DNA from: Bacillota bacterium
Lineage (GTDB): Bacteria > Bacillota > Clostridia > Christensenellales > DTU072
NCBI GenBank assembly: GCA_009781445.1
Contig: WQYD01000011.1
Location: 1 to 35,917, forward strand
Length of the DNA: 35,917 nucleotides
Direction of reading: 5' to 3'
The position numbers were made by a program, and so were the translations under genes. The notes beneath the pieces were generated by a model. The model was given only the letters and a program-made list of their open reading frames with translations. It searched no databases and was not told the origin of the DNA. Shown piece after piece: positions 3,942 to 6,011 of this stretch (its first letter is position 1; every line of letters begins with the position of its first letter).

Positions 3942-3971
3942 TTGACAAACATATGTTTGGTTTGCTATAAT
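3942..3971 (+). promoter_or_regulatory. Promoter with LexA-like palindrome in the spacer
   Basis: TTGACA (3942-3947) and TATAAT (3966-3971) are separated by 18 bp. A perfect 14-bp palindrome CAAACATATGTTTG (3946-3959) overlaps the -35 box and spacer. It fits the pattern of Gram-positive LexA/DinR boxes (GAAC-N4-GTTC) with A for G at the outer position. A repressor bound there would block RNA polymerase. The promoter at 31199-31228 has the same layout. LexA control is inference from motif shape. Confidence 0.75.
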
Positions 3972-3981
3972 AATAGCGTAA

Positions 3982-4046
3982 GTGGCGGGAAAAATAAATG
4001 CCAATACAAGCCTCGCGAATCGGGGCTTTTTCACAGAAACCGCCAC
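3982..4046 (+). ncRNA. Structured leader RNA with internal terminator, before PRTase operon
   Basis: The predicted transcript begins near 3978. A perfect 7-bp outer stem, GTGGCGG (3982-3988) with CCGCCAC (4040-4046), encloses an inner hairpin AAGCCTCG (4008-4015) with CGGGGCTT (4021-4028), loop CGAAT, followed by TTTTT (4027-4031). The inner hairpin with its T-run is a classic intrinsic terminator placed before the first gene. The outer clamp and the inner terminator can nest, so this may be an attenuator, a free small RNA of about 55 nt, or both. It matches no riboswitch class I know. The ribosome site AAAGGA lies downstream, before the ATG at 4073. Confidence 0.65.
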
Positions 4047-4072
4047 CAAAAAAATTATAAAGGAACAACCAT

Positions 4073-4687
4073 ATGAAAGTTTTTATTATTAAAGAAAATC
4101 ACTACCTCAACAAAGATATTGTTGGATTTTACCGCTCCGATTATGTTGGTTACCAAAAAGAAGGCAATCCTGATTTTATAAACAAACTAAAGAACATGAC
4201 CCGCGTAAACGGCGAATTGGATTTAATAGAAGAATTCGTTACTGTTGCGAAAATCCTAACCGAAGATCTTGGTAAACTAACAAATATCCCAAACTACGCA
4301 GGCAGTGCGATTTGCGCCGTTCCGCGCTCAAAGGCGGATTGCTCGTACCATAAAAGCCAACTTCTGTTCAAAAAAGCACTTGCAAGCGTAGCAGACAGTT
4401 TGAATTGCGAAAATTGCACCGATGCAATAAAAAGAGTAAGCGACACAAAAACCACACACAATTGGCGACTGAAAAACAACAAGGGTAGCGCGCCCTATAA
4501 AGGAATAACTAAAGATACCTGCAAAATAAACTCTAAAGCGTTTAAAGAAAAAAATGTTATACTTGTTGACGATATTTACACAGACGGTGTTCATGTTGTG
4601 GATGATTGCATTCAAACACTATTGGATCTTGGGGCAAAAAATGTGCTATTATATGTAGTGGCAAAAACATTAAACAAATCGGCATGA
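4073..4687 (+). CDS. Phosphoribosyltransferase-fold protein (type I PRTase)
   Basis: A 204-residue cytoplasmic protein. The PRPP-binding signature of type I phosphoribosyltransferases is plain at residues 161-172 (NVILVDDIYTDG), followed by a V-x-x-x-x-x-x-L-x-x-x-G-A-K-x-V helix-strand. An earlier strand ICAVPRSKAD (80-89) fits the usual start of the fold. It is not a standard purine or pyrimidine salvage enzyme; it resembles the ComF-type and conflict-system PRTases, which may act on nucleotides or nucleic acids. First gene of a tight three-gene operon: its TGA overlaps the ATG of the DprA-like gene. Expression is probably controlled by the LexA-like operator and terminator upstream. The substrate is unknown. 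Confidence 0.8.
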   Translation: MKVFIIKENHYLNKDIVGFYRSDYVGYQKEGNPDFINKLKNMTRVNGELDLIEEFVTVAKILTEDLGKLTNIPNYAGSAICAVPRSKADCSYHKSQLLFKKALASVADSLNCENCTDAIKRVSDTKTTHNWRLKNNKGSAPYKGITKDTCKINSKAFKEKNVILVDDIYTDGVHVVDDCIQTLLDLGAKNVLLYVVAKTLNKSA

Positions 4688-5499
4688 GTTCACAAATTGC
4701 AAAAAAACTATATATAGCCGTGCGACACGGCATAATTAAAACCAAGGCTCAATTTTGGAAGTTTTTCGCCGACCCCGAAAGCATAAATGGCATTGATATC
4801 GGCATATCCGAACCCGAACTTCCTTTCAGCTTAATTTGTTGTTTTGACGATAACTTTCCGAGAATCCCCGATACCGTAAAACTCACAGACAAACCTTTTC
4901 TTTTTGCATTTCACGGCGATATAACGCTACTGCACAATGCGCACAAAAATATTGCCGTTATCGGCACAATAAATCAAAGTGAAGAAATTGCGAGGCGCGA
5001 AAAGCGGATAATAGAGAAACTTGCAAGCAACGGGTGCAACATTGTAAGTGGCTTGGCTTGGGGGGCAGATACAGTTGCGCACACAGAAGCATTGGCGAAC
5101 GGCGCAAAAACTATCGCTTTTCTTCCTTCCTGCCTTGATAACATTTATCCGACTGCAAATATTGGTTTGGCAAATAGGATTATTAACTCGGGCGGGTTAA
5201 TCATAACGGAATATGTGGCAAAACCAAACAGCAAGCAAGAACAAATAAAACGCTTTATTGAAAGAGATCGGTTGCAAGCAATGTTCAGCAAGGCGGTAAT
5301 TTTAATAGCAAGCCACCGAAAAGGCGAGGGCGATAGTGGCTCACGGCACGCTATGCAAAAAGCAAAGGACTACGGCATTAAACGATTTGTAATGTTTGAC
5401 GAAAATACTGACACAAATGCACCGCAGTTCGGACTAAATTCAGACTTGTTAGCTGACGGCGCAGAGGTTTTAACATTAAATAAACTATGCTTATTGTAG
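4684..5499 (+). CDS. DprA/Smf-like SLOG-domain protein
   Basis: A 271-residue protein of the DprA (DNA-processing) branch of the SLOG Rossmann superfamily. Visible family marks, numbered from the ATG at 4684: FPRIP (58-62), IAVIGT (90-95), NIVSGLAWGADTVAH (119-133), the LDNIYPTAN stretch (141-149), FIERDRLQAM (171-180; R-N-R in classic DprA, here R-D-R) and a G-S-G-S-R-H-A-like segment near 207-213. The C-terminal winged-helix of classical DprA is missing. I chose the ATG that overlaps the PRTase stop (ATGA); an upstream in-frame ATG at 4606 lies inside the PRTase gene. Being locked between a PRTase and a HAD protein argues for a nucleotide- or DNA-sensing role in a conflict system rather than transformation. 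That role is inference. Confidence 0.85.
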   Translation: MSSQIAKKLYIAVRHGIIKTKAQFWKFFADPESINGIDIGISEPELPFSLICCFDDNFPRIPDTVKLTDKPFLFAFHGDITLLHNAHKNIAVIGTINQSEEIARREKRIIEKLASNGCNIVSGLAWGADTVAHTEALANGAKTIAFLPSCLDNIYPTANIGLANRIINSGGLIITEYVAKPNSKQEQIKRFIERDRLQAMFSKAVILIASHRKGEGDSGSRHAMQKAKDYGIKRFVMFDENTDTNAPQFGLNSDLLADGAEVLTLNKLCLL

Positions 5500-6011
5500 A
5501 TTTAGACGACACGCTCGTTGCTTCAACAAAACTAAACAACGATGCGTATAACTACGCGCTTGAAAAATTAGGGTTTGCTGAAATCAAAACCAGCGGTAGA
5601 ATCACGAGAAAAAGCCTTGCGCACTTAAGCCCCGAAATGCTTACAAAAGTTATATCAGAAAAGCAGAATTATTTCACCAGAGATTGGATGCCGTACAGGT
5701 TGACTATAAATAGCAAGCTTATCCATAAAATGATTTGGGCAGGAAAGGAAAATTGTTTTATTTGGACTAAATCCGAAAAAGGGCGCGCTATGGCTATCAT
5801 TGAGAAGCTAAGAATAGACAAAATCATTTCTGGTGTAATTTTTGACGACAAAAAGGATTTTTTGGGGAAATCTTTGAAGTTGTTGCAGGCGCATACGCGC
5901 GCCGACACGGCAGTTATCTACGAAAACACCAAACTTCGCAACTTGAAAGTTGTTGACTCTATTGATAGCAAGCCTTTCCGCGTAAAAGGTTATTTAGCGG
6001 TTTTAAAATGA
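5487..6011 (+). CDS. HAD-superfamily hydrolase-like protein
   Basis: A 174-residue protein starting with HAD motif I, VDLDDTLV (D5 nucleophile, D7), followed by a helical cap-like stretch, a motif II candidate F-I-W-T-K-S (91-96) and a motif IV candidate I-F-D-D-K-K-D-F (118-125). HAD enzymes are mostly phosphatases or phosphotransferases acting in the cytoplasm. It overlaps the DprA-like gene by 13 nt, so translation is coupled and the three products are likely made together. A HAD phosphatase beside a PRTase and a SLOG protein suggests processing of a nucleotide or sugar-phosphate product, possibly of the PRTase. The substrate is unknown. Confidence 0.8.
   Translation: MLIVDLDDTLVASTKLNNDAYNYALEKLGFAEIKTSGRITRKSLAHLSPEMLTKVISEKQNYFTRDWMPYRLTINSKLIHKMIWAGKENCFIWTKSEKGRAMAIIEKLRIDKIISGVIFDDKKDFLGKSLKLLQAHTRADTAVIYENTKLRNLKVVDSIDSKPFRVKGYLAVLK

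What the first reader, a model, noticed from the sequence alone, without database searches (positions are those of the whole stretch)
3942..6011. Candidate damage-inducible PRTase-SLOG(DprA)-HAD system with an attenuated leader RNA
Seen: three tightly overlapping genes (PRTase-fold, DprA-like without winged helix, HAD-like) behind a strong promoter whose spacer holds a perfect palindrome CAAACATATGTTTG, plus a clamped leader with an intrinsic terminator. Known: SLOG and PRTase domains recur in nucleotide-centred bacterial conflict systems, and GAAC-N4-GTTC boxes are bound by Gram-positive LexA. Inference: a DNA-damage or phage-triggered module in which the SLOG protein senses a nucleotide or DNA end and the PRTase/HAD pair makes or destroys a nucleotide signal or depletes a metabolite. 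I know no described system with exactly this gene set and leader.
Basis: partly seen in the sequence, partly recalled or inferred. Interest (0 to 1): 0.85.

Follow-up and report, generated by a model that had tools for sequence, protein, structure and literature searches.

The report
ShosTA-type phage-defence toxin–antitoxin, split toxin
These three overlapping genes are a bacterial self-poisoning phage-defence module of the known ShosTA kind, unusual in that the two halves of the toxin that are one protein in the studied version are made here as two separate proteins, and this layout turns up in distant bacteria.

Summary
The three genes are real, overlap as described, and form a conserved unit. 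It is not an undescribed kind of system. Gene 1 is a ShosT-like PRTase toxin, gene 2 a ShosA (DprA-like) antitoxin; both match PADLOC ShosTA models, and a canonical dprA lies elsewhere in the genome. Gene 3, the HAD, is the new part. In the solved reference ShosT (P2-phage type, PDB 8zvb) and in Pf-phage, Psychrobacter, Piscirickettsia and rhizobial homologues, a HAD-like domain is fused in front of the PRTase. Here HAD and PRTase are separate proteins flanking ShosA. All 6 genomes of the order that carry this PRTase have PRTase–ShosA–HAD in that order (one copy decayed). The same order occurs in Segatella and Sinorhizobium plasmids, and a permuted one in Synechocystis. Other lineages fuse the HAD to DprA or to a RecQ-type helicase. 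Most likely function: abortive anti-phage toxin–antitoxin, with PRTase and probably HAD attacking nucleotide metabolism and ShosA restraining them. New variant of a known kind.

The parts
3942..3971 (+). sigma-70-type promoter TTGACA-18 bp-TATAAT with extended -10
   Evidence: 12 of 12 consensus matches
3946..3959 (.). 14-bp perfect palindrome CAAACATATGTTTG overlapping -35 and spacer; role unproven
   Evidence: absent from related loci
3982..4047 (+). 5' leader: 7-bp clamp GTGGCGG...CCGCCAC around hairpin AAGCCTCG-CGAAT-CGGGGCTT; weak terminator-like, not conserved
   Evidence: z -2.06; not called as terminator; no conservation
4073..4687 (+). shosT-like PRTase gene, predicted toxin (204 aa), PRPP motif VILVDDIYTDGVH, lacking the HAD domain of the reference ShosT
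   Evidence: PADLOC ShosT 6.6e-9 and PsyrT 6.3e-5; low-confidence model matches PurF and ShosT 8zvc; conserved DD motif
4684..5499 (+). shosA-like gene, predicted antitoxin (271 aa, DprA/SLOG core, no winged helix)
   Evidence: PADLOC ShosA 9.5e-49; PDB ShosA 8zva/9vzo at about 7e-17; canonical dprA is elsewhere
5487..6011 (+). HAD-family phosphatase-like gene (174 aa), predicted detached HAD part of ShosT; D5, D7, T9, T94 and E146 conserved
   Evidence: PF03031/PF13419; alignment A4; co-occurrence 6 of 6; fused to the PRTase elsewhere

Best explanation
The locus is a ShosTA-type abortive-infection toxin-antitoxin operon in which the two-domain toxin is split. The PRTase (ShosT-like) is the toxic enzyme: it uses PRPP and perturbs purine/nucleotide pools until DNA is damaged. 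ShosA, a DprA-like DNA-binding protein made by coupled translation from an overlapping gene, restrains the toxin or counters its damage in uninfected cells. Phage interference with replication, recombination or transcription releases the toxin and the cell stops growing or dies before phage are made. The separately made HAD phosphatase works with the PRTase on the same metabolites, the job suggested by its fusion to the PRTase in other ShosT proteins. Shown here by computation: gene structure, family membership of genes 1 and 2, conservation of the triad, HAD-PRTase fusions elsewhere. Taken from work on the E. coli system: toxicity, defence, biochemistry. Inferred: that this copy is active, that the HAD is an effector partner (about even odds), and what triggers it.
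For: Gene 2 matches PADLOC ShosA at 9.5e-49 and gene 1 ShosT at 6.6e-9, PsyrT weaker. The low-confidence PRTase model finds PurF and ShosT 8zvc/8zvd/8zvb. Solved ShosA is a phmmer hit of gene 2. The triad in one order is in 6 of 6 PRTase-bearing genomes out of 396 in the order, in Segatella copri and S. meliloti plasmids, and permuted in Synechocystis. HAD is fused to the PRTase in PfAC02a, Psychrobacter, Piscirickettsia, Bradyrhizobium, S. fredii and P. fragi, and marginally in P2_4C9, whose protein is the solved ShosT. HAD-DprA fusion in Deinococcus. Sporadic and mobile: a 73%-identical PRTase with ShosA on a phage contig, an integrase next to the G1134 copy, type II restriction genes near the G253 copy, absent from most relatives. 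Literature: DprA+PRTase protects E. coli against T7 and lambda (PMC9122126); ShosT is a PRTase and pyrophosphatase disturbing purine metabolism and ShosA binds DNA (PMC12593503 citing Pu 2025); PRPP-site mutations abolish toxicity of the related RqlH PRTase (PMC4670107).
Against: Sequence similarity of gene 1 to known ShosT is low and confined to the C-terminal half. The phosphate-loop glycine of the PRPP motif is not conserved in the subfamily, so its chemistry may differ. The HAD match between split and fused forms is weak (hhalign probability 57%), so separate recruitment of HADs is possible. Some pairs have no HAD next to them (G460, Hymenobacter, Chryseobacterium, Halopiger), so HAD is not essential to the family. 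No experiment was done on this copy.
Confidence: 0.8

Rival explanations
1. The HAD is a second antitoxin or house-cleaning enzyme: it dephosphorylates the toxic nucleotide made by the PRTase, so the cell is guarded both by ShosA and by the HAD.
For: HAD is a separate, catalytically intact-looking protein, made last in the operon like many immunity factors; in Deinococcus it is fused to the DprA-like antitoxin.
Against: In most fusions it sits on the PRTase toxin, not on DprA. In the decayed G212 copy the PRTase and HAD are broken while ShosA is intact, which does not discriminate.
Confidence: 0.3
2. A metabolic or nucleotide-salvage operon (PRTase plus phosphatase) with a DprA-like regulator, unrelated to phage defence.
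For: PRTase and HAD are common in salvage; the window's flanks are housekeeping (feoAB, ppa, fba).
Against: Specific match to ShosA/ShosT models, sporadic presence in 6 of 396 genomes of the order, carriage on a phage contig and plasmids, and restriction, Abi and integrase neighbours.
Confidence: 0.07
3. One reading: a LexA-controlled, damage-inducible module with an attenuated leader.
For: Palindrome in the spacer of a perfect promoter; folded leader (z -2.06); one AAACTTTTGTTC upstream of lexA; related RqlH/RqlI and ShosT act through DNA damage (PMC4670107, PMC12593503).
Against: No GAAC-N4-GTTC; the box is absent from eight related loci and from recA and uvrB; other placed genomic copies lie inside reading frames; leader unique to this copy.
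Confidence: 0.08

Closest known systems
ShosTA (E. coli P2-phage type; PDB ShosT 8zvb/8zvc/8zvd, ShosA 8zva/9vzo)
   Same: PRTase toxin plus DprA-like antitoxin as adjacent genes; HAD-like, PRTase and DprA-like parts all present
   Different: Reference ShosT is one 424-aa chain with a HAD-like N-terminus that has lost the catalytic aspartates (FSIADVV); here the HAD is a separate gene with the aspartates kept, placed after shosA; low sequence identity
Pf-phage and Psychrobacter ShosTA (HAD-PRTase-zinc-ribbon fusion plus DprA)
   Same: Same three domains, HAD motif I intact
   Different: HAD and PRTase fused, with C-terminal zinc ribbons; window proteins have none
PsyrTA / RqlHI (RecQ-PRTase plus DprA-like)
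   Same: PRTase toxin held by a DprA-like partner
   Different: PRTase is part of a RecQ helicase; the window has no helicase. A HAD is fused to a RecQ-type protein next to a DprA-like gene in Raoultella plasmids
Competence DprA
   Same: PF02481 core
   Different: Window protein lacks the winged helix, scores below the NCBIfam dprA cut-off (122.8 against 191.15 bits), and the genome has its own canonical dprA

Membership tests
ShosTA | DprA-like antitoxin of the ShosA type | tested here: met
   PADLOC ShosA 9.5e-49, 164 bits; solved ShosA is a phmmer hit
ShosTA | PRTase-domain toxin of the ShosT type next to it | tested here: met
   PADLOC ShosT 6.6e-9; ShosT structures among the best Foldseek matches of a low-confidence model; adjacent, overlapping genes
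ShosTA | HAD-like N-terminal region fused to the PRTase, as in the reference protein | tested here: not met
   Gene 1 is 204 aa with no HAD hit; a separate HAD gene is present instead. Not a defining feature of the family: Hymenobacter matches the models with PRTase only
ShosTA | PRTase toxic alone, neutralised by ShosA | not testable with these tools
   Needs expression assays
ShosTA | Anti-phage activity | not testable with these tools
   Context only: phage contig, restriction genes, AbiD-like neighbour
PsyrTA/RqlHI | PRTase fused to RecQ-type helicase | tested here: not met
   204-aa protein, no helicase domain; ShosT scores better than PsyrT
Competence DprA | Equivalog score and C-terminal winged helix | tested here: not met
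   122.8 bits against a 191.15 cut-off; no winged-helix hit; canonical copy elsewhere
LexA regulon | GAAC-N4-GTTC box in the promoter | tested here: not met
   Site is AAACATATGTTT; not shared with recA or uvrB upstream regions or with eight related shosT loci
Intrinsic-terminator attenuator | GC hairpin followed by a T run, conserved leader | tested here: inconclusive
   Hairpin predicted, short T run, not called by the scan, not conserved

The most novel reading that the evidence does not exclude
HAD phosphatase is a recurrent third component of the whole DprA-PRTase toxin-antitoxin superfamily, alternately fused to the toxin, fused to the antitoxin, fused to the RecQ form, or encoded alone. 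In the split form it is a catalytically active enzyme that processes the PRTase's product, making a two-step toxin pathway that the reference system, with its degenerate HAD, no longer shows.
Probability: 0.35. Interest if true: 0.65.

Novelty: new variant of a known kind. Interest (0 to 1): 0.42.

Why it matters
What ShosT does chemically, and why it carries a HAD-like region, is hard to ask when both parts are one chain and the HAD part has lost its nucleophile. The split systems give the PRTase and an apparently intact HAD as separate proteins, so each step can be assayed alone. It also suggests that detectors which look only for ShosT and ShosA miss a conserved third gene.

Tried and rejected
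LexA regulon: checked recA, lexA and uvrB upstream regions, RAACATATGTTY sites in the genome and eight related shosT loci; no support. Rfam: no hit. Leader in relatives: only a 31-bp promoter-like match before a ylxM-like gene in G020, without the palindrome. Empty site: feoB relatives have no fba next to them, so no clean insertion boundary. HAD structure: two-sequence model of low confidence (pLDDT 54), not searched further. Viral contigs: no relative of the HAD. HAD profile across the class found only other HADs outside such operons among the three loci inspected. Plasmid and phage searches with the PRTase: only Synechocystis. Bermanella DprA-HAD-PRTase first looked like another split triad, but its pieces line up with the fused P. 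fragi ShosT, so it is more likely a broken fused gene and is not counted. The primary ShosTA paper (Nat Commun 16:3141) is not held in the library; its content is cited through a review.

Full report
Observation. The promoter is a full consensus match. The palindrome is exact, but perfect 14-bp palindromes are not rare in this window (6 seen, 4.0 expected). The leader folds somewhat better than shuffles (z -2.06), and its terminator is weak.

Identity. The DprA-like protein matches PADLOC ShosA at 9.5e-49 and the PRTase matches ShosT at 6.6e-9. The DprA-like protein falls below the dprA equivalog cut-off, and the genome's real dprA is on another contig. A two-sequence structure model of the PRTase is weak (pLDDT 56, pTM 0.59), yet its best solved matches are PurF and ShosT with PRPP (8zvc), and 8zvd and 8zvb also appear. 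So genes 1 and 2 are a ShosTA pair.

The third gene. Searching the order with the HAD (297 genomes) and then with the PRTase profile (396 genomes) gave six genomes with this PRTase, all different genera; all six have PRTase, DprA-like and HAD genes in the same order. In one (G212) the PRTase is frameshifted and the HAD has a stop inside its first catalytic motif, while ShosA is intact; that copy is from a single metagenome assembly and could hold errors. The same order occurs on a Segatella copri plasmid and a Sinorhizobium meliloti plasmid, and HAD-PRTase-DprA on Synechocystis pSYLB. A tree of the DprA-like proteins puts the window with the phage-contig copy (100/99) and inside a nine-member clade that includes Synechocystis (100/99); Segatella falls outside it, though several deeper forks are weak and S. 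meliloti was not in the tree.

Why a HAD. In Pf phage PfAC02a the toxin gene is annotated as HAD plus PRTase (ShosT), and Pfam finds HAD_2 and Pribosyltran in that one chain. The same fusion is seen in Psychrobacter, Piscirickettsia, Bradyrhizobium, S. fredii and P. fragi, the PRTase hit being below the curated cut-off in several of them. The P2_4C9 protein, which matches the PADLOC ShosT model over 424 residues and the solved ShosT over its whole length, has marginal HAD hits in its first 130 residues. In Deinococcus the HAD is fused to the DprA-like protein, and in Raoultella to a RecQ-type helicase with a ShosT/PRTase-like stretch. Pairs without an adjacent HAD exist: G460, Hymenobacter, Halopiger, Chryseobacterium. 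The window thus carries what is one toxin chain elsewhere as two separate proteins. Direct profile comparison is strong for the PRTase part (95%) and only suggestive for the HAD part (57%), so common descent of the HADs is likely but not proved.

Catalytic residues. The split HADs of the window's clade and Synechocystis keep D5, D7, T9, T94 and E146. The P2-type ShosT has lost both motif I aspartates (FSIADVV), whereas the Pf type keeps them. The PRTase keeps the acidic pair D166/D167 in the PRPP motif, but not the loop glycine in every member. PRPP-site mutations abolish toxicity in the related RqlH (PMC4670107).

Mobility and context. The PRTase on an uncultivated phage contig is 73% identical over its whole length, with phage head genes beside it; that contig ends in ShosA, so a HAD cannot be judged. 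The G1134 copy has an integrase next to it, the G253 copy sits near type II restriction genes, and the Synechocystis copy near an AbiD-like gene. In the window itself the module sits between feoB and fba with no integrase seen.

Mechanism. Published work on the E. coli pair reports that DprA plus PRTase protects against T7 and lambda (PMC9122126) and that ShosT is a PRTase and pyrophosphatase that disturbs purine metabolism and causes DNA duplications, filamentation and death, with ShosA binding DNA and T7 Gp0.7 as a trigger (PMC12593503, citing Pu et al. 2025). I carry that over to this locus by homology. The role of the HAD is my inference, about even odds between effector partner and the rest, with a second antitoxin the main rival.

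Regulation. The claim of LexA control fails the tests available: no such box at eight related loci or upstream of recA and uvrB, and the other copies of the palindrome that could be placed lie inside reading frames. A single AAACTTTTGTTC upstream of lexA is noted but not enough. The leader is unique to this copy.

Verdict. A real, conserved three-gene unit of a known kind, in a variant with the toxin's two parts on separate chains. No paper found in the searchable library describes it, but that library lacks most subscription journals and the primary ShosTA paper.

Noticed in passing
window 3998-4060: Short leader ORF MPIQASRIGAFSQKPPPKKL ending 12 bases before the shosT start; its proline codons overlap the 3' strand of the leader clamp, so ribosome stalling there could open the clamp. 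No good ribosome-binding site; not conserved.
   Followed up: partly
L003/L005 (G212 contig 3), PRTase and HAD: Decayed copy: PRTase frameshifted and HAD with a stop within its first catalytic motif, antitoxin intact, as expected after toxin loss; single assembly, could be sequence error.
   Followed up: partly
L086:4001-8431, Raoultella plasmid: HAD at the N-terminus of a very large RecQ-type helicase with a ShosT/PRTase-like stretch, next to a DprA-like gene: a HAD-bearing relative of PsyrTA/RqlHI.
   Followed up: partly
L084:1799-3217, Deinococcus wulumuqiensis pDrdI: HAD fused to a DprA/ShosA-like protein, preceded by a coiled-coil protein and a DEAD/DEAH helicase.
   Followed up: partly
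L088 and L090, Pseudomonas plasmids: Long DprA-like proteins (about 500 aa) beside DEAD/DEAH helicases; possibly another DprA-linked system.
   Followed up: no
G000:C4:31165-33407 (L075, L023, L024): Region without obvious long genes, holding GAACATATGTTC twice, GAACATTTGTTC once and repeated MFHVKH-encoding sites that look like parS (from memory); possibly near the replication origin.
   Followed up: no
L030 upstream of lexA and L077 upstream of recA: Both upstream regions share TTGAGAATAAATG, a possible common regulatory site in this genome.
   Followed up: no
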